Shown one piece after another: positions 6,481-48,503 of a stretch of 48,503 nt of DNA (positions within the stretch are counted from its first letter, which is position 1; each line of letters starts with the position of its first letter). Source of the DNA: Verrucomicrobiota bacterium JB023. GTDB lineage: Bacteria; Verrucomicrobiota; Verrucomicrobiia; Verrucomicrobiales; Akkermansiaceae. Below the pieces are notes generated by a model. That model was given only the letters and a program-made list of their open reading frames with translations, was not told where the DNA came from and did no database searches. The DNA lies in NCBI GenBank assembly GCA_030673895.1, contig JAUTCR010000064.1, positions 1 to 48,503 of the forward strand, read 5' to 3'. A program made the translations under genes and the position numbers.

Positions 6481-6662
6481 CCGCAACGACTCGCTTGCGA
6501 CGCGCTGCGGAAGCCTTCCGGCATCGTTCCTCGGAGAACGACAGCACTCGACCCTTACCCGGAGTGACGACACCGTCACCCTCGCACCGTCGGAATGAGC
6601 GATACGGTGACTAGTCTCCAAGGCCGTCTATTCAAGGACGACCTGCACGACTTGTTTACTGT

Positions 6663-29200: not shown

Positions 29201-32200
29201 GCTCCCCGAGACATTGAGCGCGGTTGCAGGAACTTCAATTTCACTCTCTCCGGCCGCAAAGCTGGCCGTGGCCGGCACGCTCAGGTTGCCGGAAGGGGTG
29301 TGAGTCAGGTTCACTGTCAACGCACTTGCAGGCGACGAGCCGGAACGGCGGATGGTCAGGCTGGTGGCCTCGCCTTCGGCCAAGACCGGAGTCGCGGAAG
29401 TCATGGTCAGGACGGGCCCCTCATCATCGCGAACTTCGAGGGGCACATTTCCCGTGCTCGAGATGGTCTCCGACCCAACCCTTACCGTTCCGCTGAGGTT
29501 AGCAGTCACATTGCCGTCATCATCCTCATCATCGACAATCTCGACGATCAAACCGACCGATGTTTCACCGGCAGGAATCGTCACCGAAGATGGAACTCTT
29601 GCTTCCGAGATATCACTGCTACCCAGATAGACGACCAAGGCTCGATCAGTGGCAATGGTTCGTTCGACTGCCGCCAGCACCGTACCGTCAGCCTCTGAGA
29701 CCGTCGACTCGTCCAACGAGAGAGAAATGGTCGGCCAGTCATCATCGGCCAAAATCAGTTGAGCATCCGTGCTCCGATGAAGGTCCGCCGTCGCTGTCAC
29801 CCGGACGGTGGACAAGGCCTCAATAACGGTATCCTGGCGCGCTTCCAGCTGGAAGCCGACACTCGTTTGCCCCGCTGGGATAATAAGCGGAGGGATGGAG
29901 ACGATTTGACTGCCCTTATTGGTGCTCACATTAACCGTTAGGTCGGCTCCTTCGGCGGCAGGCAGGCTGACTGTGCCCGCCAAGGGGCCTCCTTCTACCA
30001 AGGTCAGGTCGTCGAAACTCAAGGCTAGTTGCGGGAATTCACGCTCCCGCGTCACCACCACGGTGTTCGATTGTGGACTATCCCCCGCCCGATTGCGGGC
30101 GACGGCGTGGAAGGCATTCAGTCCGGTTTGCAAAGGGGCCGAATAATTAAACTGGCCGCCGCTGGTGGCATAGCCGGCGAAAAGGAATTGCCCGTCACGG
30201 TAGATGCGGACATTCGCGCCCGGTTGCGCGGTGATCGCCAGGGCAACGGTGGGGTCCTCCACGGTGAGACCACTCTCGGGAGCGGCGATAACTGGCGCGG
30301 GCCAAGGGGACAGCGTCACCGTCACGGACCGGGATTCCTCCGAGTAGGCTCCGGAAGTGTCAAACACCCGGGCAATCAACGTATATGATCCGTCCGGAAT
30401 GGTGGCGACATCCCAGGTCGCCGCCAACCCGTTGCCCGGCGAGCTGTCCCTCCCCAGGAGAATACGGTTCCCTCCACTCGGTTGATAGTAAAACTCGGCG
30501 GAAGCCACACCTTGGGTATCGGTCGCAGTGGCCGAGAGAGAACCCTTGGCGGTGAGAACCCGTCCGTCCACGAGGTCGGCCCCTTCCCATTGGAAAGCGG
30601 TGATTGCCGGAGGTTGGGCATCGATGGTGTAGTCGCGCGTTGCCACGCCGGACGGATTGTAGCCAGTGCGGTAGGCCCGCGCCTTCACCGTGCCACTGGC
30701 TCCCACATTCAAAGTCTCCGAATAGATGGTCGAGGCCTCCGTCGGCTCACTGCCGTCCAAGGTATAACGGATGGTAGCCCCACCAGTTGCTGTCGAGATC
30801 GACACTTCAACCGCAGCAGTAAAGGTCCCACTCGCCGGAGTAATCACCGGAGTGACCACGGTCTGGCTGAATTGAGCGTCGGAGAAGAGCTGACTCTGCG
30901 GGATCACGACCTTGCCAAGGCTGAACGATTCCCACGAGAGGGTCACATCGGCCCCGCCGGTCGCCTCAAAATACTCGAGCTTGATGTCGTAAAGTTGACC
31001 CGCAAGGAGCGAAACAGGACTGGAACTGAACTCTTGCGTTCCATGGCCATACCAATTGTCAATGAGTAGCTCGGACTCATCCTCAAAGGTCCCGTTCTGA
31101 TTGAGGTCAATCCAGAGGCGGGTCCCATCATCGTTTCTCGTGTAAAACGTGGTCTCTTCACTGAAACGGGCCAGCAGTTTTCCGGTCCAACGGATCGAGA
31201 ACTGATCCACCCCGATGGACGCGTCGGGAGAACCGCTACCAAAGTCGAAGTCCACCACCGGATCAACGCGGGTGAACCCACTACCGGTGAAGTCATCATT
31301 GTCATAGTAGTTCCCGGTCAGACCATCCCCTCCGCCGGGCGGATTCCCGATCAGGTAGGTCGCCTCACTGAACTGGCTCGCATTGAAACCTTCCGCAAAA
31401 GCCCTCGCCCGAATGCGTGTGGAGCTGGTTAGATTGATGGGCCCGGTGTAGAGCGGGCTCGTCTCATCCGGCTCGCTGCCATCAATCGTGTAATGAATCG
31501 CCGCCTCAGGGGTCACGCTCTGCAGAGTCACAGGAACGCCTCCAGGATAAAGGTCCGAGGGCGAAGGCGAAAATCCGACCGTTCCAGCGGAGGTGGAGGC
31601 GATGCCATAGCGCGCACTCACCTGCTGCTCCATGGTCTCCCGCTCGAGGTCATCCAAGACCCGGTTGTAGAGAATAATTTCCGCGATTCCCCCACTGTAG
31701 TTGGCATCGCCACTCCAGTTGCTCTCCCCGATGATATTGCTGTCCCGGATAATGGACTGGGGTAGCGAAAAGCTCGCGTCCTCCGCCACGACCGAACCAT
31801 TGTGGAAAATCTTCACCCCACCGTCGGGGGCTTGGCTGACCGTCAGAATCGCGTTGGTCGATTGCAACATCGTCTCCGCCGCCCGGAGATTGGAGCTGCC
31901 AGCGCCCCTCACGTCGTAGGTGAAGTCGTTGGTGCTACTATACCGTCCGAAGAAGATATTCGCTTGGCCCGCCCCTCGTCCTAGGTCCATGAAGCGTTGC
32001 CAGTTGCCCACCGCATCGGGCCGGGCAACGAAGATGGCCGTCAAGCCCTGAGAGTAATCCTCAAAACCTGTCGGCAGGCGCATCAGATCGTCCGATCCAT
32101 CAAACATGATGGCCTCCTGACCCCCGATGACATCCGCTACCAAAGCCGGACGCGCCGCAACCGCTGTCTGGGTGGCATCATTTCCGGAGCCCGACAAATC

Positions 32201-35200
32201 CCTCCACAGGGACACTCCGTCGGCATCGCTCATTGTCCCCACACCTGCGCGCAGCCACAATTCCATCCCCTCCCGCTGGGGAGGCGTCAAGGCAAGGCTG
32301 TCAAAGATGAACTCGGCCTCCTCCACTTCACTTGGCAGGTAGCCATCCGCATAGGCTCGCGCCTTGATGACTTCATCGGCTGAAATCTCAATGCTACCGG
32401 TATAGAGAGGCGATGCCTCGGTGGGCTCGCTGCCATCACGGGTGAAACGAATCTCCGCATCTGCCAGTGGATGGCTCAAGGTCACAACCTTGGTGGCAGC
32501 ATAGAGTCCTCCATCAGGAGAAATCTCGGGAGGCTGAATAGCCTCAAGAGGCAGGCCATATCGCTCGCTTAAGAAGGCAGCCACTTCCTGCCGTTCCGCG
32601 ACCGACAGTTCCCGGTCATAGACAATCAGTTCGGCAATATCTCCATTGCTGGGCTGGAAGGTGTAGCCCACGCCTCCACCGATGGCCAGACGGCCAAGGT
32701 TCCCTGTGTTGTGGGAATTCTCGGTCAAATCTCTCCCATTGTAGAAGTAAAAGCTGTCTGTAGGAGTCTGTGAGGCGATAGACAGGGATGGCACGTTATC
32801 CCGCAAATCGACATCACTGACCCAGCCATTGGCATAGTAACCCGAGGAATTCCCGGAATTGCTATGGGGGCCAAGCAGCCAATTGGAATTGTCCGCGCTC
32901 TGGAGCAGACGTCCGTAGGAGGTTGATCCGCCGGCGAGCTTGTTAAATACGAGGAAGACAGTGGAAGGACGACCCACGCTGTAGGAGGGATCACCAAACA
33001 TGCCGTCATCGAAACCGTCGAAACGAAGGACAGGATGCGTTGGCTCGCTCGCCCCACTGAGGCGGAACTTGAAGTTGCCGGCTTCACCCAAATAGCGGCT
33101 ATCATTCAGCCGCGTGCCCGGGAAAATTGAGCCCGTGGAATAACGGCTGACGTTAGGATAGGAGATTCCCATCCCAAGAAGCTCATCCCATTGCGAGCCG
33201 CCATAATAAAAATCCCCCCCGAGCCAGCCACTACTCTCCAAGAAGTAGCGCCCTGGCGAAAGAATCAGCGGACTATCCAAGGGCTTGAAACGGGTGCCCC
33301 CTTCAAGTTCGCCCGGGTCGGCAGTGGAGAACTCACGCGTCGCGAGAACTCCCAGACTGGAATCATCGGAGGCATCATCAGGAGTATCATTGTCGTCGAC
33401 CTCATGCAGGCGCACCGTGACCGTTCCGTTAAACCCGTCGGAACGATGATCGAAAGCCCCCAAGTGGGTGATTTCCACTTCCTCTTCCACAATGAAGTCA
33501 GTTCCAACCGAGCCCGAGTAGTTGGTCGTCCCAGCGGCTCCTGAAGGAACGAGAACGGAGGGCTGGACGGAGCCGCCAAAGGCATCGGCGATTCTCATCG
33601 GAGAGAGCCCGGGCCGCTCTTGCACAAAATCCCGGCCATTCCCGGACAAATCCCGCCAGCGCCGCACCGAGCCATCCGCATGAGTCTCAATGCCCCGATC
33701 CGCTCGCACCCAGAGACCGGGCTCACTGACAGGGAGCGGGTAGTTACTAGATAGCCCGTAAAACACCTCGGAACGCCCACTCGTCATCTCTCCGAGGAAA
33801 GCGACGGCACGCACAGTTGTCTCACGGGAAACGGTGAAAGGAGTCGAATACAGAGGCGAGCTTTCGGTCGGCTCACTTCCGTCAGTCGTGTAGCGAAGTT
33901 CGGCTCCGGGCGTGCTTGTTGAGAGCGTAACCTCCACATCTCCAGTTCCGTAGTTGGCGACAGGCGCGATGACCGGGGCCTCCACCTCGAAGTCGAAGAG
34001 ATTATTGCGCAAGGCCATGTAACGCTGCATCTCCCAAAGCTCAGAGTCGTCGAGAACGCGATCGAAAACGATCAGCTCGGAGATCCGGACTGGAGCCGGA
34101 TCATTGTTTAGACCTTCTCCCCCACCAAGGCCGAGGCGGCCGGGATTCGGTGTCGAGTAAGAAGAATTCGAGGTCACCTCCACACCGTCGCGATAAGCGC
34201 GGGTGTAGTCGGGTCCGTTGACCATGATGCCGAGATGAGGCTCGATAATAGTAAAGTTCTCATTCCGAACCCAGCCGTTGGAATAGAATCCGTCATATCG
34301 GAACCACCAATTACCATTCAAGCTTTGTAGGGCGTAGCCATGTTCCGCGCGATTCCATTCGAAGGCCATGAGCACGGTACTGGGACGGGAAATATCCATC
34401 GTCTCAACGCCGATGAGACCGTCATTGCTTCCATCGAATGCGACTGCAGGCACAGTCGCTGCCGAGGATTCAGGAATCACCTTGAAGTTTGCCGCGCCAT
34501 TGTAATCGAGGCGCGCACTGTCGAAAGAGGTCGGCCAAGCGCCACCTGTCCCGACGTAGCGGGAGACCCCGATGAAACGAAATCGCGGATCATCATTCTC
34601 AATACTACGACTTCCCTCGTAGTAATAATCGTATCCCGTGTATCCCCAGGCGAGAATCGTGTAAGCGCCCGGCGCCAAGGTGACGGGCGAGGCCAGCTCC
34701 TTGAAGCGCAGCGTACCCTCCAGCTCTCCCGGAGCCTCCCTTGTGAAGGTCATTTCTGCCAGCATTGTTCCGGCTGTGTCATCACCCTGGGTGCTTTCCG
34801 TTCCCCCATCGTTCCGGCTCCAGAGTTGCACCGTGATGGTTCCAGCGAAGCCATCAGAAAGGTGATCAAAAGCGCCGAGGTGGCTGACCTCGATCTCATC
34901 ATCGACAACGAAATCTTCACCAAGGCTTCCTGCATAAGCCCGGCTACCAGCACCATCGGAGACAATAATGGCGCTCGTCGCCGTCCTTTCGAAAGCGTTC
35001 TCCTCCCACCCGGGGCGTTCCGATGCGACAGGTTGATAGACATCATTGCCATTACCGGAGAGATCGTTCCACCGGCTGACCTTTCCCTCGCCATCCATTT
35101 CCACCCCGCAATCCGCGCGCAGCCACATGGTGGCGCCTGCCACTGGCAAGTCCCCGGGTGTGGCACTCTCTTCATAACAAGCCGCCGCTACCAACGATGG

Positions 35201-38119: not shown

Positions 38120-38501
38120 CACTCTACTTCAGTTGGTAACGTCTTGGAATCGATGACGAGCGCAATGAATGGCCAGCTAAGCCCCCAGCCAAATCATCAC
38201 GAAATTGCACCCCCATGAGCACAACTCTCCCACCCCCATTCCCGAGTGATGGCGCGTCAGTCATTCCAACCCTAGAAAACCCGCTTTTGTTCTAAGTAAG
38301 CAAGAGCCTTCACTCCTCGCCTGTTTCCGAAACCAATAAATAACTGATGATAAGCATTTTAAACACCTCCAACAATCTCCCCGAACTTGACCCTTTAATT
38401 TAACTACCTTAATCAATTGGCGTCGCCATCGCTCGCCTCAACGAAATCGTTGCCTCTCTTGACCCCGACGGCACTCATCCGCATCCCACTCCCATCCCCG
38501 C
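38120..38501. other. Region upstream of the giant gene; no gene seen
   Basis: This AT-richer stretch holds no plausible coding frame on either strand. It should contain the promoter of the giant gene on the - strand, but I cannot point to a convincing -35/-10 pair or Shine-Dalgarno sequence. A short palindrome GTTTCCGAAAC (38323-38333) is the only symmetrical element noticed. Confidence 0.5.
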
Positions 38502-38615: not shown

Positions 38616-39227
38616 TTATTTGAAGCTTGAGGTGGTGGCGTAAGCCAAGCCGATGTTGTCCACCAGCATGTTGAGATTGTGTCGCAGCGCGGCGGCAAGG
38701 TTGGCATTGTCGAGCTTGGACCCATTGAGGCGACCCCAAAGGTCGCGAGCGCCAGAGCTCTTCTCATCGTCGTCCTCTTTCTCCATCTCAGTGTCGAGCC
38801 TGCTGAAAAGGTCGATGACCATGCGGGTGTAGCTGGTCTGCCAGTCGGATGCGGTCATTTCGCCAGCTTCATTGAATTCGCGGAGAACGATGCCCGTGTT
38901 CAAGTCCTTCTCGCCAATATTGATCCGAATCTGGGAAGCGCCAACATAGCCGGAAGGGGTGACGGTGAGCTCAATGTAGCAGACCGCATTGGACTTCCCT
39001 CCCGCGATGTGATCCACCCGGGTAGAGACGAAGATGCCGCCGTCGGCATTGCCAGTCACGGTGGGCACATGGGTGCGGTAAGTTTGATTATCAAGGGTAT
39101 AGACCGCCGTGCGGTCCTTACGCCAGCCATTGAGGGTCTGGCCGAAGCCCTCCACATTCACACCCAGTCCGAAGGCGGGTGTCACCACGGAAAGCCCCGC
39201 GGCAAGGATCATTGCTACTAGTTTCAT
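38616..39227 (-). CDS. Unrecognised secreted protein, last gene of the TonB operon
   Basis: A 203-residue protein with signal peptide MKLVAMILAAGLSVVTPAFG. I do not recognise the family. The middle is beta-rich (GGIFVSTRVDHIAGG, then CYIELTVTPSGYVGASQIRI), and the C-terminal 70 residues are helical and charged (EMEKEDDDEK). It has one cysteine and no lipobox. It starts 31 bases after the porin stop and ends just before a strong terminator, so it is the last member of a nine-gene operon. Its position suggests a periplasmic or outer-membrane accessory to the TonB/porin machinery; this is inferred from context only. Confidence 0.8.
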   Translation of the reverse strand: MKLVAMILAAGLSVVTPAFGLGVNVEGFGQTLNGWRKDRTAVYTLDNQTYRTHVPTVTGNADGGIFVSTRVDHIAGGKSNAVCYIELTVTPSGYVGASQIRINIGEKDLNTGIVLREFNEAGEMTASDWQTSYTRMVIDLFSRLDTEMEKEDDDEKSSGARDLWGRLNGSKLDNANLAAALRHNLNMLVDNIGLAYATTSSFK

Positions 39228-39258
39228 CGTATTAAGTTGGTTATTTCTACTAATTTAC

Positions 39259-40545
39259 TTAAAATGCGACCCGGCCACCCGTGTGCCAAAGCCAGCTGGT
39301 TGCGTCTCCGTCGTCCTCGTCCTTCAACAAACGATACTCCAGACCCGTCGAAAACAAAAGATGGTCGCCATAGACGTGCCAATCGAGACCTCCGTAGAAG
39401 GAGTGGAACTCGTCAACCGGAGTAACCAATCCATATCCCATGAGGGGCTGGGTAGAGTCTCCGATAGCGGAAGGCACTCCCGAGGTGACCGAGATGGCAT
39501 CGGGATCATCTGAATCGGCGTAGCTATAGCGGCCAACGAAGCGAACCGCCTCATCGTAGAGCCAGTAGCGACCGAAAAGGTTCATCCCCCATGCGGTATC
39601 CACCGGACCATTGGCGAGGAGGAAGTCCCCGGCAAAGTCGAACTTGCCGCTACTGACCTCGATACCCGTCGAGATCAGGTGCTCGTAGCCCTTGGGGATA
39701 CTGCCTGCCTCGTCATCCAGATTATAGATGTAGTCCAAGTGCCAGCGCTGATGCCCGGGAGGGACGGCGACATCTTCTCCCTCGGTACCGGCCTCCGCGG
39801 TGGGCGAGAAGGTGTAGGCCAGGTTGGCGAGAATGAATCCATCACCCCCGAAGCCCGGCACATTCTTATCGTAGCCCCCGGAGAAGTAGCCCAGCCCGGC
39901 CATCCAAGGGCCGCTGTAGGTCTCGAAGCGCACGCCCAGCGTATTGGCTGGCGCAATGTTCTGAATGAGGGGCGAGAGTCCGGGAGCCACGCGAACTTCC
40001 GGATCACGCTTATACTCCTGGCTGAAAGGAGGGCGGAATTTACCGGCCTCTACCTTCAAGCCATCATTGACATTCATGGTGGCTCGCAGGGTATCGATGC
40101 CCTGGTAGCCATTGCCGTCGGCAACGACTTTGGCCTCAAGATCCGTATTCCCGAAGGCGCGCATCACTCCCCCGAGGCGCAGGCGTCGCAGCGTGTTGTC
40201 ATCGACGTCGGTATCATTGCCTCCGTCGGCATCGATAGAGCCCGTGGTGTAGCCCCACTCCGCCATGCCCTCGACGGCGACGCGTTGAACGAGCGCGCTG
40301 TTCGGGTTCTCATAGACAATCGCTTTGGGAGGAAGCGAGTTCCGCCAACGGCGGGAGTAGTCGGTATCATCGACAAGGACTTCCGGCGCGGACTCGCCGG
40401 AAGAGCTCGCGCTGCCGGACTCCTCATCCTCGCTGACTACTGTGATTTCATCCTCGGTGATTTTTCCCTCGAGGAGGTCCAGAGCCTCATTGCCGAGGGC
40501 GCTTCCCGCGCAGCCGAGGCCAATTGCTAAAAATTTTGCTCTCAT
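39259..40545 (-). CDS. Outer-membrane porin (phosphate-selective porin O/P-like)
   Basis: A 428-residue beta-barrel protein. Residues 1-18 are a signal peptide (MRAKFLAIGLGCAGSALG). An acidic Ser/Glu-rich linker (about 28-60) precedes the barrel. The barrel part shows alternating amphipathic strands and the OprO/OprP-like pattern LRRLRLGGVMRAFGNTDLEA, then VEAGKFRPPFSQEY, where the PFS/PFG turn is typical. It ends RVAF, a C-terminal phenylalanine recognised by the BAM machinery. It starts 14 bases after the TPR gene stop. Porins of this family are passive channels; phosphate or pyrophosphate selectivity is known only for the Pseudomonas members and cannot be assumed here. Confidence 0.85.
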   Translation of the reverse strand: MRAKFLAIGLGCAGSALGNEALDLLEGKITEDEITVVSEDEESGSASSSGESAPEVLVDDTDYSRRWRNSLPPKAIVYENPNSALVQRVAVEGMAEWGYTTGSIDADGGNDTDVDDNTLRRLRLGGVMRAFGNTDLEAKVVADGNGYQGIDTLRATMNVNDGLKVEAGKFRPPFSQEYKRDPEVRVAPGLSPLIQNIAPANTLGVRFETYSGPWMAGLGYFSGGYDKNVPGFGGDGFILANLAYTFSPTAEAGTEGEDVAVPPGHQRWHLDYIYNLDDEAGSIPKGYEHLISTGIEVSSGKFDFAGDFLLANGPVDTAWGMNLFGRYWLYDEAVRFVGRYSYADSDDPDAISVTSGVPSAIGDSTQPLMGYGLVTPVDEFHSFYGGLDWHVYGDHLLFSTGLEYRLLKDEDDGDATSWLWHTGGRVAF

Positions 40546-40559
40546 CGTGTTCGAAGTGG

Positions 40560-42074
40560 TTACTCGCTTTCGTTATTTGCCTCTTCGGCATTTTCCTTGG
40601 CCTCGCGTTCCTGTCGAGCCGCCTCGCGCTCGGCCTGTTCGCGGGACTCACGTTCCTTTTGTTTTTCGGCGAAGACCGAAACCTGGCGCACATAGCGGCG
40701 CAGGTTGTCGCTTGGCTTCATCGCCACCGCCTGCTCGAGATAGCTCAGGGCATCGACATACTCGCGCTGCCGCACCTGCATCTGGCCGTAGCTCCGGGTC
40801 GCCGTGTAGCGGATGTCCTCGTCCTGGCTATTCATCGCCAGCTTGAACTGGGCGCCCGCGGTAGCAAGAAGTTGGCCGGCTTCTTCCTCGTCGGCAGTCT
40901 CAGCCTGCCGCTCGTAGTAGAGCCCATTCTCGATACGGGCCTCACCATTGGTGGGGTCGATGGCGAGGATCTCGGTCAGCAAGGTGCCGACCCGGTCGAT
41001 TTCGCCTGTCTCCTTGGCAATGGTCAGCTCGACCAGCTTGAGGCGGACCTGCTCGTCCCGGCTCAGGGTGACCCCCTTGCTGCGGATGGCGGAGATGTAT
41101 TCGGCTGACTCGCGTGGTGCACCGTAGTCGGCGAGCACCTCGGCAGTCTTCAGGCTCCGCTGGACGTTGACGGTTTCGCTCATCTCCAAGGCGGCGAGGT
41201 AAGCCCCAAGGGCGAGGAGCGGCTTGCGTTGATCCGTGTAGATGTCACCCAGGGTATTCAGGGTGGCCTCATCCGCGAGGTTCTTGAGGCGCATGGCCTC
41301 GAAGTTGGTGGCCGCGCGCAGGGGCTCGCCCATATTGAGATAGCAGTTGGCCTGCATCTTCCAGAAGTCCCCCGCCTCGGGGGTCTCGGTCAGCAGCTCA
41401 CCCAGCATGGCTGCGGCTTCCACCCACTTCTCCTGCTGATAAAGGGTCAGGGCCAAGCCGGACTTCCATTGCGATTCGTCTGGATTGAGGAGATAGGCCT
41501 GACGATAGGCACCCTCAGCCGCAAGAGGCTTGCCCTCCTGCGTGTAGGCATAGCCGAGGAGGCCAAAGATGAGTTGATCAGCCTCGCCCAGAGCGAGCGT
41601 CCGCTTCAGGTGGGGCAAGGCCTCGCTGATGCGGTCCTCGCTGGCGTAGAGAAGGCCGAGGTATTTATGAGCGCGGCGGAAATCCGGATGACGCTCGATG
41701 GCCAGCTTGTAGGCCCGTTCCGCGTCCTTGGTGCGATCATTCATGTAGTAGAGCTGGGCCAGCTGGAAGACCAGCGCCGCACTCACATCCTTGGGCTCGA
41801 CTCCTTCTTCCGTTGGATTCTTCCGCTCCTTGATGAAGTTCACAATGCGGGCCTCGGCCTCGCGGAAGCGTCCGTCGGAGAAGAGCTCGGATAGCTCAAT
41901 GAGTAGCTCGCTTTCTTCCCGATCCACCTTGGGCTCGACCGGAGAGAGGAAGCCAAAGGCACCGACAAAGCCCTTGATGAACTCCTTGCTACGAAATTGC
42001 TCTTTGGGAATATCAAACGGCTCGGCCAATGCCGACCCCGCCATGAGAGCTACTAGAAACATCGTTCTCTTCAT
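40560..42074 (-). CDS. Exported tetratricopeptide-repeat protein of the TonB cluster
   Basis: A 504-residue protein starting at the ATG at 42074, which shares its A with the TGA stop of tonB (TGATG), implying translational coupling. Signal peptide MKRTMFLVALMAGSALA. About nine TPR-like helical pairs follow, for example LAQLYYMNDRTKDAERAYKL, then ERHPDFRRAHKYLGLLYASE and LLGYAYTQEGKPLAAEGAYR. The C-terminus is a highly charged helix of Glu, Arg and Lys. TPR proteins are encoded beside TonB2/TtpC-type clusters in other bacteria and probably scaffold the periplasmic complex. No enzymatic motif is present. Confidence 0.88.
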   Translation of the reverse strand: MKRTMFLVALMAGSALAEPFDIPKEQFRSKEFIKGFVGAFGFLSPVEPKVDREESELLIELSELFSDGRFREAEARIVNFIKERKNPTEEGVEPKDVSAALVFQLAQLYYMNDRTKDAERAYKLAIERHPDFRRAHKYLGLLYASEDRISEALPHLKRTLALGEADQLIFGLLGYAYTQEGKPLAAEGAYRQAYLLNPDESQWKSGLALTLYQQEKWVEAAAMLGELLTETPEAGDFWKMQANCYLNMGEPLRAATNFEAMRLKNLADEATLNTLGDIYTDQRKPLLALGAYLAALEMSETVNVQRSLKTAEVLADYGAPRESAEYISAIRSKGVTLSRDEQVRLKLVELTIAKETGEIDRVGTLLTEILAIDPTNGEARIENGLYYERQAETADEEEAGQLLATAGAQFKLAMNSQDEDIRYTATRSYGQMQVRQREYVDALSYLEQAVAMKPSDNLRRYVRQVSVFAEKQKERESREQAEREAARQEREAKENAEEANNESE

Positions 42075-42769
42075 CAGTTCTTCATTTTGAAATTGAACGG
42101 CTGCACCACCGTCATCACCGCCTTGCGGCCTCCTTTGATACCAGGCTTGAATTTCCACCGCTTGGCCGCATTGAGCGCGGCCTTGTCCATATCACCGTAG
42201 CCCGACGTCTCCTTGACCACCGCATTGGTGACCTTGCCGGTCTCGTCCACAGTCATCGCCACAAGCACGCGGCCGCTCACCCTTTTCTTAAGGAGGCCTT
42301 GCGGATAGCGGGGAGGGATCTTGGTCGTCGCCCGGGGCGGCGTATCCAGATCGCCACCTCCCAGATCGTTGGGATCCTGGGCAACGTCGAAATTTGGCTT
42401 CAGATCGAGCATCATCTTCCCGCCGATGCCGGCTCCCAGGTCGATGGGAAGGTCCGCTATATCCATCGGCTCGGGCTCGATCTCCGGCTCGGGTGGAGGC
42501 GGCTCATCCTCCTCAGGCGGCGGTGGCTCGTCCTCGAAATCGAGCTCCTCGGGAGGCTCCTCGACGACCTTGGTTTGCAGAGCGGTGGTTTCGGTCCTCT
42601 TCCCCTCCTCCAGCTTCTTCATGAGCGGGATCACGTAGAAGACGAGAAAGGTGAAGATCAGCCCCCCAATGAGGGCCAGCATCATATTGAGCGGACGATT
42701 CCCCCGCGGCGGCTGATAGACATGCCTCCTATTCGCGAGTCTCCGGTGATTTGACTGCTCTTCTGCCAA
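42074..42769 (-). CDS. tonB: TonB-family energy transducer
   Basis: A 231-residue protein with one membrane segment (about 29-49), an acidic proline-rich periplasmic linker (about 70-101, rich in EPPPPE units rather than the usual Lys-Pro), and a C-terminal TonB domain (about 155-230) including YP at 155-156, GRVLVAMTVDETGKV and AALNAAKRWKFKPG. TonB passes proton-motive energy from ExbB/ExbD to outer-membrane proteins. The start is taken as the TTG at 42769, 14 bases after the exbD stop, because the first ATG (residue 29) would remove the cytoplasmic N-terminus. Its stop overlaps the TPR gene start. Confidence 0.92.
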   Translation of the reverse strand: MAEEQSNHRRLANRRHVYQPPRGNRPLNMMLALIGGLIFTFLVFYVIPLMKKLEEGKRTETTALQTKVVEEPPEELDFEDEPPPPEEDEPPPPEPEIEPEPMDIADLPIDLGAGIGGKMMLDLKPNFDVAQDPNDLGGGDLDTPPRATTKIPPRYPQGLLKKRVSGRVLVAMTVDETGKVTNAVVKETSGYGDMDKAALNAAKRWKFKPGIKGGRKAVMTVVQPFNFKMKN

Positions 42770-42783
42770 CTTGGTGTACTGGG

Positions 42784-43197
42784 TTAAGCCTGGGTGAAAG
42801 TGACGGTCTCCGCGCCGGCCTTACGAACCTCGTCGTAAACCCGGGTGCGCACCCCATGGTGGGCGCGCGGATGACTTTGAATAATGATGGGAGCCTCGGA
42901 ATCCTTGTTCAGCGCGGTGCGGACGATATTGGCAACCTGGTCGAGACTGATGCGGCGGCCATCATTCTCAATCACGTTTTGCTGGCTGACGGTGAAGACC
43001 ACGGTGGTCTGCTCTGTCACCGTCGAGACGGCGGCCGAATCCTCCGGCAATGGCAAGGGGACTCCATCCTCCTCAACGAACACCGCAGTCACGATGAAGA
43101 AGATGAGAAGAATGAAGACGCAGTCAATCATCGGAGACAGATCCGGTTCCGGATCCTTCTCATCTGCGCCAGCGCCTAATCTGCCTCGTCCGAACAT
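42784..43197 (-). CDS. exbD: ExbD/TolR-family protein, second copy
   Basis: A 137-residue protein with one N-terminal membrane helix carrying the essential aspartate: PDLSPMIDCVFILLIFFIVT, near residues 18-37. The periplasmic domain follows. ExbD subunits sit inside the ExbB pentamer and couple proton flow to TonB. The ATG overlaps the stop of the preceding exbD copy (TAATG at 43195-43199). Its membrane segment is nearly identical to that of the first copy, whereas the periplasmic parts differ, which points to an old tandem duplication. Confidence 0.92.
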   Translation of the reverse strand: MFGRGRLGAGADEKDPEPDLSPMIDCVFILLIFFIVTAVFVEEDGVPLPLPEDSAAVSTVTEQTTVVFTVSQQNVIENDGRRISLDQVANIVRTALNKDSEAPIIIQSHPRAHHGVRTRVYDEVRKAGAETVTFTQA

Positions 43198-43616
43198 TAG
43201 CTCTCAGTTGATACGGTGATTCGATTCTTGAAGACTCCCGCCTCCAGACATTCCTTGCCGACATCGTCGACCAAGCCTGCTTGAGCGGAGGAATCGCCCT
43301 TGATGATGACATGGGCCTCCGAGGGATCGGACTTCTCCAGCAGCAGCGGCTTCACCACTTGCTGGACTCCAGCCACCCCGATGCTTTGCCCATCGTAAAA
43401 AACCTTATTATCCGCAGTGACGGCGAAGATAATGCTATTCTTCTCCAAGGACTCCGCCGTGGCAGCGAGAGGATCGCTCACCTCGACCTTGGGCTCCTTC
43501 ACGAAGACCGTCGTCACGATGAAGAAGATGAGGAGGATGAAGACGCAATCGATCATCGGCGAAAGGTCTGGCTTCGCCTCGTCGTCATCTCCGGACATGG
43601 GATTTCCTTCCAGCAT
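43197..43616 (-). CDS. exbD: ExbD/TolR-family protein, first copy
   Basis: A 139-residue protein. The membrane helix KPDLSPMIDCVFILLIFFIV contains the conserved proton-path aspartate. The periplasmic region (about 45-139) includes FYDGQSIGVAGVQQVVKPLL and ends VFKNRITVSTES. The ATG overlaps the stop of the upstream exbB (TAATG at 43614-43618). Together with the second copy it may form an ExbD heterodimer; ExbD normally acts as a dimer. Confidence 0.92.
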   Translation of the reverse strand: MLEGNPMSGDDDEAKPDLSPMIDCVFILLIFFIVTTVFVKEPKVEVSDPLAATAESLEKNSIIFAVTADNKVFYDGQSIGVAGVQQVVKPLLLEKSDPSEAHVIIKGDSSAQAGLVDDVGKECLEAGVFKNRITVSTES

Positions 43617-44218
43617 TATTGAATCGACTTAAATTTCGTAGTGACGACGGTGGCTTGAATCTGGCTCAGCACTGCCGCGATTTCGTTGCGCTTTTGGCGC
43701 ACAATGAGGGCGAAGAACATTCCCGGCAAGGCCACAACGAGTCCCGTCAGCGTGGTGAAGAGAGCCTCCCGCATGCCCGCGGCGATCATCTCCATACTCT
43801 GCTTACCGCCACCGGCGCTGAGACCATCAAACATGGCAAGCATCCCGAGCACCGTGCCTAGCAGACCCGTCATGGGAGCCGCCGCAATGAGCGTGCTGAT
43901 GATGATGAGACGCTGATCAATGGTGCGCACGAGGACATCAAAGATCTCATCAAAGCGACGTTGCACCCGCTTGACCGAGAGCCGGGGGCCGTGGACCGCA
44001 TACTTGATAATCTCCCCCACCCGGCCGGTGGCCTCCTCGGGATTCTGGATCCAGTGCTCCCATTGATCCCGCTTCGAGTTGGTCAGATTCCCCTTCATCA
44101 CAAAGATCACCGAAGCGACCGAGGTGATGTAGAGCATCGCCGCCACGGAGGCGAGCACGACCATGACCCAGCCGCCTTCCGCGAAGATGTCGATGACTGC
44201 CTGGACGTTTTCCTGCAT
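43616..44218 (-). CDS. exbB: MotA/TolQ/ExbB proton channel protein (short ExbB)
   Basis: A 200-residue inner-membrane protein with three hydrophobic segments (about 17-40, 107-130 and 150-175). The family signature appears as LIAAAPMTGLLGTVLGMLAMF followed by MREALFTTLTGLVVALPGMF, the last two helices of the ExbB channel. It corresponds to the ExbB2 subunit of TonB2-like systems. It lies 19 bases after the TtpC-like gene and overlaps the first exbD by one base. Confidence 0.93.
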   Translation of the reverse strand: MQENVQAVIDIFAEGGWVMVVLASVAAMLYITSVASVIFVMKGNLTNSKRDQWEHWIQNPEEATGRVGEIIKYAVHGPRLSVKRVQRRFDEIFDVLVRTIDQRLIIISTLIAAAPMTGLLGTVLGMLAMFDGLSAGGGKQSMEMIAAGMREALFTTLTGLVVALPGMFFALIVRQKRNEIAAVLSQIQATVVTTKFKSIQ

Positions 44219-44237
44219 CAGATCAAATTAGGGTCGC

Positions 44238-45692
44238 TTAAACGGGGGCCAGCTCCTTCTCGTCGAAGTCGTCGCCGTCATCCCCTCCGCTGCTATCGTC
44301 GGCCAACTCTTCCTTGGTCTCGCTATCGAGCTCGGTTGTGCCATTGAGGATGGCAAGAGCCACGCCCTGCGCCTTATCGAAGCGCCCACGGGCCAAGCTC
44401 TTCAGCATGCCGTGAATCACGATCACCGGAATAGCCACGACGAGACCCTGTGCCGTCGTCACCAGCGCGGCACCAATTCCCTTCGAGAAGTTCTGGGCAT
44501 TACCCGTGCCATAGATGGCCATGGCATCGAAGGTCTGCATGATGCCGAGAACCGTTCCCAGCAGACCCATCATCGGTGCTGCGGCTGCCACGAGGGCAAG
44601 GAAAGGCAGGAAGCGCTCCAAACGCGGCTGGATGGCACTCAGCTTTTCCAAGAGCGCATCTTCGAGGATCCGGCGGCGCTCGTGGAAGTTCTCCACTCCA
44701 GCTTGAACCATCACCCCGGTGAAGCCTTGCAAATCCTTCGCCTTGGCCATCGCCTTCTCTCGATCTCCGGCGAGAAGGTCGTCGAGAATCTCGTTGATGG
44801 TGCGACGGGTCGGGATGCGGAAGAGATTAATCTCGAGGAGCTTGAAGAGGGCAATGAGGATCGCCACGCAGCCGAGACCGATAATCGCGTAGCCAACGTA
44901 GCCGCCATCTGCCATCCGGTCAGCCAAGGTGGGAGTTTCCTGCACGGCCTTGAGCGCCTTGCCGCCCGTGGCGTCGATAGGCAAGACGCCGGAGCCTGCC
45001 TCGACGAACTGCTTCACCAGCGGACCTTTCTCATCTTCAAAGACCGCAATCGCAGGCGTCTTCTCCTGCACCAGACCCGTAAGACCACCAATCTCTTTAC
45101 CCTTGGCTGCAAAGTATCCAACCGGCCCCAAGACCGCGAACTCACCATTGACATAATCGGAGCCGACCAGGCCTTGACCGTCGAACCGTCGGCCTCCTGC
45201 TGCCTCCTGCAGGCGTCTGGCACCCAGCTTGAGCCCTTCCAGGCGAAGGACGATTTCCTCTGCCAGGTTGTCCTCTTCAGTCGCCGCGTTGCGCAACCTC
45301 TCCACATCATCCTTGTAGAGCTGAACCTCCGCAGCCTGCAGGCGATTCAACAAGCCCTTGGAATAGCCATCAATGGTCTCCGTGGTGTAGGCGAATTCAC
45401 CCTTCCGGCTCGCCAGCTCGCTATCGAGTCGGCGCTGGCTTTCATCGAGCGAATCCTCCTTCGCCTCCAAAGTCTTCAACTCCTGCTCCTTCTCGCGCAA
45501 CTGCTGCTCGAGTCCCTCGACCTCCTCAACCAGAGGCACCTCCATCGTGGCGATAGCCTGCTGCAGGGCATCATGCTCTGCCTTGGCTTCGGCCAAATTC
45601 TCCTGAGCCTTGACCAGCGCCTCTCCCGAGGAGACCTGCCCGGTCACCCAACTGGTGGCTGCGACCAATATTGCGGCAATACGAATCTTCAT
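44238..45692 (-). CDS. TtpC-like MotA/TolQ/ExbB protein with periplasmic coiled coil
   Basis: A 484-residue protein. Signal peptide about 1-18 (MKIRIAAILVAATSWVTG). Residues about 24-165 are charged heptad-rich sequence that should form a periplasmic coiled coil. A globular segment follows, and the ExbB core lies at the C-terminal half: membrane helices near 265-287, 361-385 and 408-428, with APMMGLLGTVLGIMQTF and ALVTTAQGLVVAIPVIV. The tail is acidic (DDSSGGDDGDDFDE). This long-N-terminal architecture is that of TtpC, an ExbB-like subunit required by Vibrio TonB2 systems. It lies 20 bases downstream of the DUF3450 gene. Confidence 0.9.
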   Translation of the reverse strand: MKIRIAAILVAATSWVTGQVSSGEALVKAQENLAEAKAEHDALQQAIATMEVPLVEEVEGLEQQLREKEQELKTLEAKEDSLDESQRRLDSELASRKGEFAYTTETIDGYSKGLLNRLQAAEVQLYKDDVERLRNAATEEDNLAEEIVLRLEGLKLGARRLQEAAGGRRFDGQGLVGSDYVNGEFAVLGPVGYFAAKGKEIGGLTGLVQEKTPAIAVFEDEKGPLVKQFVEAGSGVLPIDATGGKALKAVQETPTLADRMADGGYVGYAIIGLGCVAILIALFKLLEINLFRIPTRRTINEILDDLLAGDREKAMAKAKDLQGFTGVMVQAGVENFHERRRILEDALLEKLSAIQPRLERFLPFLALVAAAAPMMGLLGTVLGIMQTFDAMAIYGTGNAQNFSKGIGAALVTTAQGLVVAIPVIVIHGMLKSLARGRFDKAQGVALAILNGTTELDSETKEELADDSSGGDDGDDFDEKELAPV

Positions 45693-45712
45693 CGTCTGAA
45701 ATCCTTAATCTG

Positions 45713-46522
45713 TTACTTAATCTCCAAAGGCAAATTGACCATCTGCGATTCCCCTGACCCGTCCGCCGACTTGTAAAGGTCCAGCACCCGTGAGGCGATG
45801 TCCTCGCCCTCCATGGGCTCGAAGACCCAGCCCTCGCTCAAGTCACTATAACCGCGCAGTGCCACCGTGCCCTCGTCATCCACCGCGTAGGCGTAGGAGA
45901 GCCCCATGTAGAGCACATTCATGTTCTTATCAGTCTCCCCCACCCGCAGACGATTCTTCACCGCCCAGATTTTGGTGTGGAAGCGCTCGGCATCACTGAG
46001 GATTTGCACCAAGGGCTGCAAGCGCTTGTTGAGACCGAGATCCTCCTTCTCGTCCGGCTCCATCGTGATGTGGGCCTGTAAGTCCTCAAGGGCCGCCTTC
46101 AGCTTGGGCGAGCCATCCTCGCTCTCGTAATAAAATTCCGGGATGATGGGCTGCAACTTGGCCACCTCAGCCTCCACCTCGGGAAGGGCGCTGCGGAAGG
46201 CATCCCGCGCCGCATTGTAAGCCTCCTGCTGATCCAGCTTCTCCCGGGAGGTCTCATCGACCGCAGCCAACCGCTTCTCGACCTCGGCGATATCCACCTC
46301 GGCCTGCTCAATCATTCCCTTGAGCCCCACAATACTGTCCTGCAGAACGTCCTTGCGCGAGGCCCAGCTGCTCTCGAGCTCCTGCGTCGCCTGCATCTGC
46401 TCCATCCACTGCTCAATGGTGGTCTTCAGCTCGACGTGAGTCTCGGCCACCGTCTGCCCCTGCAATCCGCCGATCGCCAGCGAAATCCCAACTACTGCGC
46501 ACGCTCGATTCAACCTAGCCAT
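45713..46522 (-). CDS. DUF3450 family periplasmic coiled-coil protein, first gene of the TonB operon
   Basis: A 269-residue protein starting at the ATG at 46522. Signal peptide about 1-27 (MARLNRACAVVGISLAIGGL). The long helical region at about 30-105 contains TTIEQWMEQMQATQELESSW and WASRKDVLQDSIVGLKGMI. The C-terminal half includes VLYMGLSYAYAVDDEGTVAL and RGYSDLSEGWVFEP, typical of DUF3450. Proteins of this family are regularly encoded directly before ttpC-exbB-exbD-tonB genes, and the same order is seen here. The 174 bases upstream, before the preceding terminator, should hold the operon promoter; I see no clear sigma-70 boxes. Confidence 0.88.
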   Translation of the reverse strand: MARLNRACAVVGISLAIGGLQGQTVAETHVELKTTIEQWMEQMQATQELESSWASRKDVLQDSIVGLKGMIEQAEVDIAEVEKRLAAVDETSREKLDQQEAYNAARDAFRSALPEVEAEVAKLQPIIPEFYYESEDGSPKLKAALEDLQAHITMEPDEKEDLGLNKRLQPLVQILSDAERFHTKIWAVKNRLRVGETDKNMNVLYMGLSYAYAVDDEGTVALRGYSDLSEGWVFEPMEGEDIASRVLDLYKSADGSGESQMVNLPLEIK

Positions 46523-46696
46523 TTGGAAGGCGCCCTTATGCGCCCAAATGGACAAACAACAATCCCCCTCATCTGACGATTTTGTAACATTCGCGATTTT
46601 TCTCCCTCTCACTGCGTATCGACTCGCCATTTTCCTGCCCCTCCTTAGAGGAGTCCACCGCCCCTGCCAAGCCACCGCCGCCCTATCGGGGAAAAT

Positions 46697-46771: not shown

Positions 46772-48503
46772 TTATTCTTCCTCCACTCGGAAGAAGAGCT
46801 TTTCAGGAGTACCGTCAGGAATCAGGAAGGTGCGGGAAACTACACCGCCGGTTCCAGGAATTCCGGTCTCACCAGAGATGGTATCAGCGAAGCTAGTCAA
46901 ATCATCCGAATAGGTGATTTGGTAAGTCGCAGAAGCCTCACTCATGAACTCGATGGTGGCATTGTTGCCGTCCTTGGAGATCGAGGTGATGATGACGTCA
47001 CCGTCAGGCTGCAGGAAGTGACCAAGAGCATCGGTTCCGGTCCAGCCAAGGGCCCAGTTGGAGCCCTGCGAGAAGGCACCCTGGTAGTCGGTCACCTCGA
47101 AGAAGCTGTCCGCGCTCAAGTCGGTCACCGCTGCTCCGTTGGCCGCAAGCAGAACCGAGTCTGCTGCAGGACGGGGATCGTAAAGCGCGTTGGCCACGTC
47201 CACGAAGTTCAGTCCCACTCCGGTGCTGCTCGCGTCAGTGAACTGGGCAGCAAGGACGGATTCGACAGAGACGTTGTCTGCTTCGAGCGCGTTGCTCACA
47301 TCGGTGCTCACGTTGGTGAAGCTGGCGGTGTCGTTAAGAACCGCGTCGCCGGTCACCGTGACGAGGTCCGCGAAGGACGTTACCGCACCGTTGTAGACGG
47401 AACCTGCGAAGAAGTCGTCAATCTTGAAGGCGTGGTCGCCTTCATTGTCTCCGATGAAGGTGATGTTCGCGATGGTCGGCGCGGTCTGGAAATCGTTGGT
47501 GTCGCCGCCAACGTTGCCGTCCCACTCACCACCGTGGTCACTGTCCTGGATGCTATTATCGTCGCTGTCCGTGTCGGTCGGGGTCTGGATGACACAGGCG
47601 AATTGGATGTTACCGGTGTAGCCCTCGTCGAGGTCGAAGCCGTCATCCTTCACGAAGCTCACCAGAGCATACTTCAGGTTGGCGGTGCCACCGAAGAACT
47701 CGATGCCGTCGTCACTGTTGGACATCACCTCGATATACTCGAGGGTGGTGCCACTTCCCACGCCACCAAGGGTCAGGCCGTTGATTTCGTTGTCGGTCTC
47801 GAACTCGTAACCACCATGACGGATGGAGACGTAAGTCAGGATACCGCTGCTTTCCTCGTCGTTGGTGCCACCATACTCGATGATGTCCGCGCGACCGTCA
47901 TTGTCCGCATCGGGAGAAACCGACGGGGCAAAGCCCTCAATGACGTTCTCGCCAATCAGCACGCCGGGGGCGCTGTAGTTGTAGGTCCGGGCGTTGCCGA
48001 GAATGACAAGACCGCCCCAGAGGCCACGGTCGGCCTTAGTTGGCATCAGACCCGCAACGCTGTCGCTGTCCATGTCCATGCCCCGCTCAGCTTCAAGCTC
48101 GCGGATGGTGGTGAACTCGATAGGAGCTGCTGCCGTTCCCTCGGCTACAATCTGGGAGCCACGGGTGATAACAATCGAACCGAACTCGTCGTCGGCCTTG
48201 TCCGCCGTGCCAAAGTCATTGGTCGTGTTATAGATTTTGGTTCCCGCAGGAATGGTCAGAACATTGCCGTCGGTCACGAAGAGTCGGTCGGTCAGGATGT
48301 AGTTCTTGGTGGAGTCCAGCGTCTGGCTGCCGTTGAGGACATAAACACCCAATGAAGAGTCAAAGGACACCAGCTCACTGGCCATCACGTCGACATCGTC
48401 ACCGGTCAGGTTGGTGAGGATGCTGTCCGAAGCATTGACAAAGTGACCCAGATCCGAAGTTCCGGTCCAGCCAAGGGCCCAGTTGGAGCCCTGCGAGAAG
48501 GCA
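46772..48503 (-). CDS. Large beta-helix-like repeat protein, C-terminal part (5' end outside window)
   Basis: At least 576 residues. The frame stays open to the right edge, so the start lies beyond the window; the GTG at 48388 is only an internal codon. The pattern of short repeats is that of a right-handed beta-helix-like family common in secreted proteins of marine bacteria: IPAGTKIYN, GSIVITRGSQIVAEGTAAAP, RGLWGGLVILGNA, IEYGG, YVSIRHGG, LTLGGVGSGTTLEYIEVM, DDGIEFFGGT and VSFVKDDGFDLDEG. The C-terminal 70 residues (YQITYSDDLTSF to LFFRVEEE) form a Verrucomicrobia-type C-terminal domain. A sequence near the end recurs at the window edge, so several modules of about 475 residues are stacked. 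The function is unknown; a surface location is likely. Confidence 0.85.
   Translation of the reverse strand, partial: AFSQGSNWALGWTGTSDLGHFVNASDSILTNLTGDDVDVMASELVSFDSSLGVYVLNGSQTLDSTKNYILTDRLFVTDGNVLTIPAGTKIYNTTNDFGTADKADDEFGSIVITRGSQIVAEGTAAAPIEFTTIRELEAERGMDMDSDSVAGLMPTKADRGLWGGLVILGNARTYNYSAPGVLIGENVIEGFAPSVSPDADNDGRADIIEYGGTNDEESSGILTYVSIRHGGYEFETDNEINGLTLGGVGSGTTLEYIEVMSNSDDGIEFFGGTANLKYALVSFVKDDGFDLDEGYTGNIQFACVIQTPTDTDSDDNSIQDSDHGGEWDGNVGGDTNDFQTAPTIANITFIGDNEGDHAFKIDDFFAGSVYNGAVTSFADLVTVTGDAVLNDTASFTNVSTDVSNALEADNVSVESVLAAQFTDASSTGVGLNFVDVANALYDPRPAADSVLLAANGAAVTDLSADSFFEVTDYQGAFSQGSNWALGWTGTDALGHFLQPDGDVIITSISKDGNNATIEFMSEASATYQITYSDDLTSFADTISGETGIPGTGGVVSRTFLIPDGTPEKLFFRVEEE
47034..47078 (-). 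repeat. 45-base direct repeat, copy 1 (C-terminal side)
   Basis: Encodes AFSQGSNWALGWTGT. It is identical base for base to 48459-48503, lies 1,425 bases (475 codons) away and is in the same frame. Confidence 0.95.
48459..48503 (-). repeat. 45-base direct repeat, copy 2 (at the window edge)
   Basis: Identical to 47034-47078. It is cut by the window end, so the true length of the identical block may be greater. Confidence 0.95.

What the first reader, a model, noticed from the sequence alone, without database searches (positions are those of the whole stretch)
38616..46522. Nine-gene TtpC-type TonB operon carrying two ExbDs, a porin and an unknown secreted protein
The order DUF3450 - TtpC-like - ExbB - ExbD - ExbD - TonB - TPR is the Vibrio TonB2/TtpC layout with a second exbD. 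Here it continues without a break into a porin and a secreted protein of unknown family. Gaps are 31 bases or less and three junctions overlap (TAATG/TGATG). TonB normally drives gated TonB-dependent receptors. No receptor is encoded here; the only outer-membrane protein is a porin. The set may be an energised envelope machine in which TonB works with the porin or the last protein.
Basis: partly seen in the sequence, partly recalled or inferred. Interest (0 to 1): 0.65.

Follow-up and report, generated by a model that had tools for sequence, protein, structure and literature searches.

The report
Phosphate-starvation TonB uptake operon with porin
A marine bacterium probably switches on, when phosphate runs short, one outer-membrane uptake system that joins a TonB motor, a receptor and a surface protein (both lying beyond the end of this contig) and a phosphate-type pore, which suggests a role for a kind of TonB cluster whose role is unknown.

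Summary
The nine genes are real, tightly packed and at the stated coordinates. "No receptor" is a contig-edge artefact: the window is a whole contig cut inside a secreted repeat protein gene; contig C29 shares an exact 64-base end, continues that gene in frame and carries a TonB-dependent receptor before it. A matrix built from pstS promoter sites of relatives finds Pho-box-like sites before the receptor, the secreted protein and the first of the nine genes, none before porin or last gene. In three relatives pst genes follow the operon; in Alteromonas macleodii the same cluster, without porin, follows phoBR-pstS. The secreted protein has relatives in the elpS-receptor-gsp gene order; Caulobacter ElpS is made under phosphate starvation. 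The porin model matches OprO/OprP best. The porin follows the TPR gene in 43 of 43 close clusters, but in 0 of 20 more distant ones; the last gene is in 21 of 41 testable. Best reading: a Pho-controlled TonB3-like system for acquiring phosphorus. Direct TonB action on the porin is unproven; a near-invariant porin tail (NEALDxLEGK) keeps it testable. Regulation and function are inferred from sequence only.

The parts
46772..48503 (-). 3' part of a secreted repeat protein gene (ElpS-like), cut by the contig end; the rest is on contig C29:1-1578, two similar halves in tandem
   Evidence: 64-base exact end overlap and 87.6% identical DNA repeat; in-frame join, 1081 aa plus stop from the first listed codon; paralogous half at C29
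46701..46730 (-). terminator-like stem with T tail between the ElpS-like gene and the nine-gene unit
   Evidence: 12 pairs, 8 G-C; 8 such matches in the region against 6.6 in shuffles
46572..46590 (-). Pho-box-like site ATGTTACAAAATCGTCAGA, 49 bases before the DUF3450 start codon
   Evidence: 21.0 bits with a matrix made from pstS promoter sites; top score of the window; 20 shuffled windows give 0.15 scores of 15 bits or more on average
45713..46522 (-). ttpB-like, DUF3450, secreted
   Evidence: PF11932, 48.8 bits
44238..45692 (-). ttpC-like, long N-terminal region plus MotA/TolQ/ExbB domain
   Evidence: PF01618, 95.4 bits; profile matches solved ExbB/TolQ
43616..44218 (-). exbB
   Evidence: PF01618, 79 bits
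43197..43616 (-). exbD, first copy
   Evidence: PF02472, 81.9 bits
42784..43197 (-). exbD, second copy
   Evidence: PF02472, 83.3 bits; two copies in 6 of 44 close clusters
42074..42769 (-). tonB (listed start TTG)
   Evidence: PF03544, 71.1 bits; one of two PF03544 matches of the genome
40560..42074 (-). ttpD-like TPR protein, signal peptide by eye
   Evidence: TPR families; alignment
39259..40545 (-). OprO/OprP-like porin with conserved mature N-terminal tail NEALDxLEGK
   Evidence: PF07396 22 bits; model pLDDT 84; OprO Z 28.2, OprP Z 28.1, next family 24.6; tail
38616..39227 (-). secreted protein of unknown family, last gene
   Evidence: no Pfam/NCBIfam match; homologues; model pLDDT 82.4 without significant PDB match
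6562..6580 (+). second Pho-box-like site of the window, about 80 bases before a metallophosphoesterase gene (6663-9470); supporting evidence, not part of the operon
   Evidence: 17.0 bits; PF00149

Best explanation
The nine genes are the energising and porin half of an eleven-gene, phosphate-starvation-induced outer-membrane acquisition system. Full order: TonB-dependent receptor, ElpS-like secreted repeat protein, then ttpB-ttpC-exbB-exbD-exbD-tonB-ttpD-porin-last gene. When phosphate is short, PhoB-like control at three Pho-box-like sites (before the receptor, before the ElpS-like protein, before ttpB) turns on three units. The ElpS-like protein and the receptor capture a phosphorus-containing substrate at the surface. 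The ExbB/ExbD/TonB motor, with the accessory TtpB, TtpC and TtpD, energises that receptor. The OprO/OprP-like porin lets phosphate or small phosphate esters through passively. Shown by sequence: gene content, order, contig overlap, shared promoter element, conservation, predicted porin fold. Inferred: PhoB binding, energising of this receptor, substrate class, passive porin role. The substrate and the role of the last protein are not known.
For: Receptor and ElpS-like gene upstream, also in relatives: ElpS-like gene in 34 of 40 loci that hold the ttpB gene (5 of the other 6 have under 600 bases upstream), receptor in 17 of 40 (22 of the other 23 have under 2.6 kb upstream). GTNAC-N6-GTNAC before 33 of 34 receptors (30 of 31 after removing repeats), 18 of 29 pstS genes and 7 of 195 other genes, 4 of these 7 being pst genes; only the 6-base spacer stands out. 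Matrix from pstS sites, 12 bits or more: ttpB 30 of 38, ElpS-like 12 of 18, receptor 32 of 34, other genes 8 of 170, last gene 0 of 22. The element also precedes a phoB/phoR-like pair in R. persicicus and a metallophosphoesterase in this window. pst genes downstream of the operon in 3 loci. A. macleodii: phoB-phoR-pstS-oxygenase-ElpS-like-receptor-ttpB-ttpC-exbB-exbD-tonB-TPR. elpS-receptor-gsp order of relatives of the ElpS-like protein. Porin closest to OprO/OprP. In B. fragilis a porin O gene and a MotA/TolQ/ExbB gene rise in low phosphate, though another porin O gene falls (PMC3547664 passages).
Against: No expression or binding data. The matrix is not fully independent: its pstS sites were picked with a pattern first seen at the receptors. 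Half-sites are usually mirror images (22 of 34), so another dimeric regulator is conceivable. 8 of 38 ttpB upstreams score below 12 bits; 11 of 29 pstS upstreams lack the element. Over the whole genomes the pattern is only modestly above its reversed control (17 against 10; 19 against 15), and some copies precede genes without evident phosphate role, such as dnaA. In the 20 distant clusters 0 of 13 receptors and 1 of 5 ElpS-like genes reach 12 bits. R. ishigakijimensis (L063) has 5.5 kb upstream without receptor or ElpS-like gene. The window's genome has no PstS-like match. In three gammaproteobacterial loci E. coli-type sites are no more frequent overall than in shuffles. The ElpS-like protein was not compared with CC0170 itself and shows no lipobox by eye.
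Confidence: 0.74

Rival explanations
1. Energised or gated porin (the first reader's idea, made specific; it could hold together with the best explanation): TonB or TtpD holds the porin by its conserved N-terminal tail and opens or positions the pore, so the porin is a driven partner.
For: Porin directly after ttpD in 43 of 43 close clusters; tail pattern, drawn from these same sequences, in 42 of 43 operon porins, in 0 of 5 neighbouring paralogous porins and 0 of 509 other ORFs (the 43rd, L076, is a mis-started ORF that reads NDALDILEN); the tail is low-confidence in the model, as a short linear docking motif would be; in the window it is followed by DEITVVS, which by recall resembles a TonB box.
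Against: A receptor for TonB exists next door. The tail motif is predicted as a short helix, at low confidence, and the TonB-box-like stretch is not conserved in relatives. Porin-free clusters of the same kind exist. Tails can also plug a pore.
Confidence: 0.1
2. Iron-type TonB2 system: the cluster takes up an iron chelate, as TonB2 of Vibrio does.
For: TtpB/TtpD are needed for TonB2 iron uptake in V. vulnificus (PMC6957404 passages).
Against: Pho-box-like sites before three units; pst and phoBR neighbours; OprO/OprP-like porin. Fur sites were not scanned.
Confidence: 0.06
3. Export rather than import: the TtpB-TonB motor helps to place or release the ElpS-like protein, the place that type II secretion takes in the alphaproteobacterial clusters.
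For: An ElpS-like/receptor pair is followed by gsp genes in two alphaproteobacteria and adjoins ttpB-tonB genes in Alteromonas and Verrucomicrobiota. ElpS release depends on type II secretion (PMC2996285 section 12).
Against: I saw no precedent in the papers looked at for TonB-driven export of ElpS; the simplest role of TonB beside a receptor is uptake.
Confidence: 0.07
4. The shared element is real but belongs to another regulator of envelope genes, so the phosphate reading is wrong.
For: Mirror-image half-sites in most copies; copies before dnaA and other genes without evident phosphate role.
Against: Shared with pstS and a phoB/phoR-like pair; 11-base period and A-rich spacer as in PHO boxes (PMC4415409 passages, and recall); phosphate genes adjoin the cluster in two phyla.
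Confidence: 0.08

Closest known systems
TonB3/TonB2 systems of Vibrio vulnificus and Teredinibacter (ttpB-ttpC-exbB-exbD-tonB-ttpD)
   Same: Gene order and protein kinds; TonB3 has an outer-membrane receptor at the start of the operon (PMC6957404 passages).
   Different: Here a second exbD, a porin and a further secreted protein are added, an ElpS-like gene sits between receptor and ttpB, and the promoters carry Pho-box-like sites. TonB2 is iron-regulated; the role of TonB3 is stated to be unknown (PMC10734418 passages). No Vibrio sequence was compared here.
Caulobacter elpS (cc0170) - cc0171 receptor - type II secretion cluster
   Same: A secreted ElpS-like protein beside a TonB-dependent receptor, tied to phosphate starvation (PMC2996285 passages and sections 5 and 12).
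   Different: There followed by gsp genes; here by a dedicated TonB motor and a porin. No lipobox by eye in the window's protein. No direct sequence comparison with CC0170.
Alteromonas macleodii plasmid pBGP9 cluster
   Same: ElpS-like gene, receptor, ttpB, ttpC, exbB, exbD, tonB, TPR, directly after phoB-phoR-pstS and an oxygenase gene.
   Different: One exbD, no porin or last gene among the annotated neighbours; I saw no functional description in the searches made.
OprO/OprP phosphate and polyphosphate porins
   Same: Best fold matches of the porin model (Z 28.2 and 28.1 over about 300 residues).
   Different: 14-15% identity; conserved N-terminal tail; encoded with a TonB motor; the arginine ladder was not examined.

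Membership tests
TtpBCD-type (TonB2/TonB3) TonB system | Order ttpB-ttpC-exbB-exbD-tonB-ttpD in one unit | tested here: met
   with a second exbD inserted. That ttpB is DUF3450 rests on position and on the term occurring in PMC6957404 (those passages were not shown), not on a sequence comparison with Vibrio.
TtpBCD-type (TonB2/TonB3) TonB system | Outer-membrane receptor at the start (TonB3) | tested here: met
   Receptor on contig C29 upstream; separated from ttpB by the ElpS-like gene.
TtpBCD-type (TonB2/TonB3) TonB system | TtpB and TtpD required for transport | not testable with these tools
   Needs mutants.
Pho regulon | PHO box: two direct repeats with an 11-base period upstream | tested here: met
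   definition from PMC4415409 passages. Half-sites are also mirror images, and the consensus is not the E. coli one.
Pho regulon | PhoB-dependent induction by low phosphate | not testable with these tools
   Needs expression data.
ElpS family (secreted repeat protein) | Gene beside a TonB-dependent receptor | tested here: met
ElpS family (secreted repeat protein) | Lipoprotein signal with lipobox | tested here: not met
   No cysteine at the end of the signal sequence, read by eye in the joined protein; so it is called ElpS-like, not ElpS.
ElpS family (secreted repeat protein) | Sequence similarity to CC0170 | not tested
   Only relatives in elpS position (Indioceanicola, Sphingomonas) were matched.
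OprO/OprP porins (PF07396) | Family profile match over cut-off | tested here: met
   22.0 bits, cut-off 20.9, over residues 105-234 only.
OprO/OprP porins (PF07396) | Barrel fold nearest to OprO/OprP | tested here: met
   Best fold matches OprO and OprP; strands were not counted against OprP.
OprO/OprP porins (PF07396) | Arginine ladder / phosphate selectivity | not tested
   Not examined.

The most novel reading that the evidence does not exclude
The porin is a docked partner of the motor: its near-invariant periplasmic tail (NEALDxLEGK) binds TonB or the TPR protein TtpD, so that one energised complex couples a TonB-dependent receptor, a surface ElpS-like protein and a phosphate-type porin, with the pore gated or positioned by the inner-membrane motor. 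This would be a TonB-assisted phosphate porin.
Probability: 0.12. Interest if true: 0.85.

Novelty: new variant of a known kind. Interest (0 to 1): 0.62.

Why it matters
TonB3-type clusters are known but their function is stated to be unknown (PMC10734418 passages). This cluster ties one such type to phosphate starvation in Verrucomicrobiota and, by gene order, in Alteromonas, and names testable parts: three promoter sites, a receptor, a surface protein and a porin with a conserved tail. It would extend dedicated TonB motors to phosphorus, a nutrient that limits parts of the surface ocean (general knowledge), and it would link the orphan ElpS observation in Caulobacter to an energised uptake route.

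Tried and rejected
No receptor: rejected (contig edge). Last protein's function: structure prediction and two structure comparisons gave no significant match (best Foldseek E 8.5e-3; VIA Z at most 6.0), so no family is claimed. PDB sequence searches with the secreted repeat protein and with the porin profile found nothing at E 1. The fold of the secreted repeat protein was not predicted; I called it 'helix' in scripts from recall of how such repeats look. LipL48 of Leptospira as a relative was only recalled; the paper looked at (PMC2964297 passages) does not settle it. Shewanella SO_1821/SO_1822 was a recalled lead; one search gave a listing only, which I did not follow. E. coli-type Pho-box scan of three gammaproteobacterial loci: overall counts equal shuffles; several of the best sites lie before the ElpS-like and ttpB genes, which is only suggestive. 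Crp-like reading of the element: set aside by spacing, from recall (8 instead of 6 between TGTGA and TCACA). In print: the searches gave listings in which I saw no description of a phosphate-controlled TtpB/TonB cluster with a porin; most subscription papers are not held, and the 2012 Vibrio TonB3 paper was not held.
Full report
OBSERVATION. The nine minus-strand genes are present from 46522 to 38616. Pfam gives DUF3450, MotA/TolQ/ExbB with a long N-terminal region, ExbB, two ExbDs, TonB, TPR, Porin_O_P (22.0 bits, cut-off 20.9) and no match for the last protein; NCBIfam adds nothing for the porin and the last protein. Gaps are at most 31 bases and three junctions overlap. A terminator-like stem at 46730-46701 follows the gene upstream. 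The one sigma-70-like match of the region lies just before the porin (40617-40590); it is weak and below the shuffle mean of 2.6.

THE RECEPTOR. The window is a complete contig, C64, and its right end lies inside a gene for a secreted repeat protein. In the same genome, contig C29 carries a paralogous copy of that gene at its left end and a Plug domain behind it. The ends of C29 and C64 share exactly 64 bases, and the repeat halves are 87.6% identical in DNA, which would explain the assembly break. Joined at the overlap, the gene reads through in frame. Behind it lies a 1164-aa protein with CarboxypepD_reg, Plug and OMP_b-brl_3 domains (Plug below its cut-off, 19.7 against 23.9 bits); the same domains and position are found in four other genomes. 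So the statement that no receptor is encoded holds only for this contig.

CONSERVATION. A search with the TPR alignment returned 47 loci: 44 strong matches (L062-L105, from Verrucomicrobiota or unassigned bacterial bins) and 3 weak TPR matches that I set aside. In those 44, the porin follows the TPR gene in 43 of 43 whose DNA continues. The last gene, by a profile of five sequences, is present in 21, not found in 20 with room, and undecidable in 2. The secreted repeat gene is upstream in 34 of 40 loci that hold the DUF3450 gene; of the six others, five have under 600 bases and one, R. ishigakijimensis (L063), has 5.5 kb without it. The receptor is seen in 17 of 40; 22 of the rest have under 2.6 kb upstream and the other is again L063. 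Two ExbDs occur in 6 of 44, and 19 of 44 have a divergent TtpC and no separate ExbB profile match. In the phylum sample, TtpD-type TPR genes occur in 77 of 387 genomes at E 1e-40. I took 20 clusters from 20 of the 67 genomes outside the strongest-scoring group of ten: no porin was found in the 20 stretches by my profiles, and four have two ExbDs. The porin thus looks like a group-specific, fixed addition to an older motor. The receptor itself was found in 38 of 145 genomes of the family at E 1e-60.

REGULATION. Upstream of receptors I noticed GTNAC-N6-GTNAC, also twice before pstS of R. persicicus. I then took 34 receptor upstreams (29 of the 30 loci returned, plus five others) and 29 pstS upstreams (of the 30 best-matching loci returned, from 79 genomes with a match). 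The pattern occurs before 33 of 34 receptors (30 of 31 non-redundant), 18 of 29 pstS genes and 7 of 195 other genes; four of those seven are pst genes. Only a spacer of 6 stands out. The consensus is roughly GTGAC[AG]AAAnnGTCAC, an 11-base period with an A-rich spacer as in PHO boxes (PMC4415409 passages, and recall), although the halves are mostly mirror images. A matrix built from the 24 pstS sites, which had been picked with this pattern, ranks three sites first in this genome's cluster: before the receptor (23.8 bits), before DUF3450 in the window (46572, 21.0 bits) and before the secreted repeat gene (17.0 bits); nothing of note lies before the porin or the last gene. Across the loci, 30 of 38 DUF3450 upstreams, 12 of 18 repeat-gene upstreams and 32 of 34 receptor upstreams reach 12 bits, against 8 of 170 other genes and 0 of 22 last genes. 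Four of 48 porin upstreams also do; all four are further porins downstream, not the operon porin. Three of 44 TPR genes and one of 22 ExbDs also reach 12 bits, and eight DUF3450 upstreams do not. These scans used 250 bases before and 60 inside the longest ORF start. The window holds three scores of 15 bits or more, at two sites, against 0.15 in 20 shuffles; the second site precedes a metallophosphoesterase gene. The element also precedes a PhoB/PhoR-like pair in R. persicicus (best NCBIfam hits PhoB and PnpS/PhoR, all below their cut-offs). I looked at 14 stretches around other copies in the two genomes; several precede genes with no evident phosphate role, for instance dnaA, and pattern counts are only modestly above the reversed control (17 against 10 and 19 against 15).

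PHOSPHATE NEIGHBOURS. pstS-pstC-pstA, with pstB and phoU where the DNA reaches, and paralogous porins lie downstream of the operon in three loci. In Alteromonas macleodii the order is phoB-phoR-pstS-2OG oxygenase-repeat protein-receptor-ttpB-ttpC-exbB-exbD-tonB-TPR; two Pseudoalteromonas replicons have ttpB to TPR followed by repeat protein and receptor, the TPR gene being annotated only as hypothetical in one. Among the 20 more distant clusters, the 5 with a repeat gene all have a site of 12 bits or more before DUF3450, against 1 of 15 others (Fisher 4e-4). The five hold only three distinct site sequences, and there 0 of 13 receptors and 1 of 5 repeat genes reach 12 bits. Relatives of the repeat protein in Indioceanicola and Sphingomonas lie in the order repeat protein-receptor-gspC-gspD-gspE, the order described for elpS-cc0171-gsp in Caulobacter, where ElpS is made and released under phosphate starvation and its overproduction goes with more secreted alkaline phosphatase activity (PMC2996285 sections 5 and 12). 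PhoB of Caulobacter controls TonB-dependent receptors (PMC11208175 passages). I therefore call the protein ElpS-like; it was not compared with CC0170 and lacks a lipobox by eye. The window's own assembly has no PstS-like match.

PORIN AND LAST PROTEIN. The porin model (pLDDT 84) matches OprO and OprP best (Z 28.2 and 28.1), clear of the next family at 24.6. Its mature N-terminus is near invariant: N19 and L22 are invariant, A21, D23, L25 and E26 at 90% or more of 42 sequences, although this stretch is low-confidence in the model. A pattern drawn from it is in 42 of 43 operon porins (the 43rd is a mis-started ORF reading NDALDILEN), 0 of 5 paralogous porins and 0 of 509 other ORFs. That suits a docking or plugging tail. 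The last protein has a fairly confident alpha/beta model (pLDDT 82.4) but no significant fold match; relatives were found in 12 of 288 genomes of the phylum sample, many outside such an operon, including one in this genome.

INTERPRETATION. The best reading is a Pho-controlled, TonB3-like system that energises its own receptor for a phosphorus-containing substrate, with an ElpS-like surface partner and an OprO/OprP-like porin as passive companion. The role of TonB3 is stated to be unknown (PMC10734418 passages), while TonB2 of Vibrio serves iron (PMC6957404 passages). That TonB acts on the porin remains possible, not shown. Fur sites were not scanned, and no expression data exist here.

Noticed in passing
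window 6562-9470: A protein of 935 aa with a calcineurin-like phosphoesterase domain (PF00149) is preceded by a 17-bit Pho-box-like site: possibly another member of the same regulon.
   Followed up: partly
L078-L105, 19 of 44 loci: A divergent TtpC without any separate ExbB profile match, mostly with one ExbD: TtpC may itself be the ExbB of these systems.
   Followed up: no
G000 (own genome): No PBP_like_2 (PstS-type) match in an assembly estimated 97.5% complete, although relatives carry pst genes. May be a gap.
   Followed up: partly
L188:493-2208 and L194:2388-4103: Similar 571-aa proteins of the window's genome and R. persicicus, without Pfam match, both with a Pho-box-like site upstream.
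   Followed up: no
L023:9432-10130, L026, L027, L030, L035, L037, L038: Relatives of the last protein outside this operon, some with longer Pro/Lys-rich tails.
   Followed up: no
window 23291-38122: A single 4943-aa ORF of repeat-rich secreted type directly downstream of the operon on the same strand.
   Followed up: no
L079, L095, L096 upstream of DUF3450: Instead of the box, a repeat ATGACACAAATGACACG with a 9-base period lies at the start of the gene in some of the loci whose sites score low.
   Followed up: no
L240, L241, L247: Two unidentified genes of 222-267 codons lie between the TPR gene and the receptor in three distant clusters with two ExbDs.
   Followed up: no
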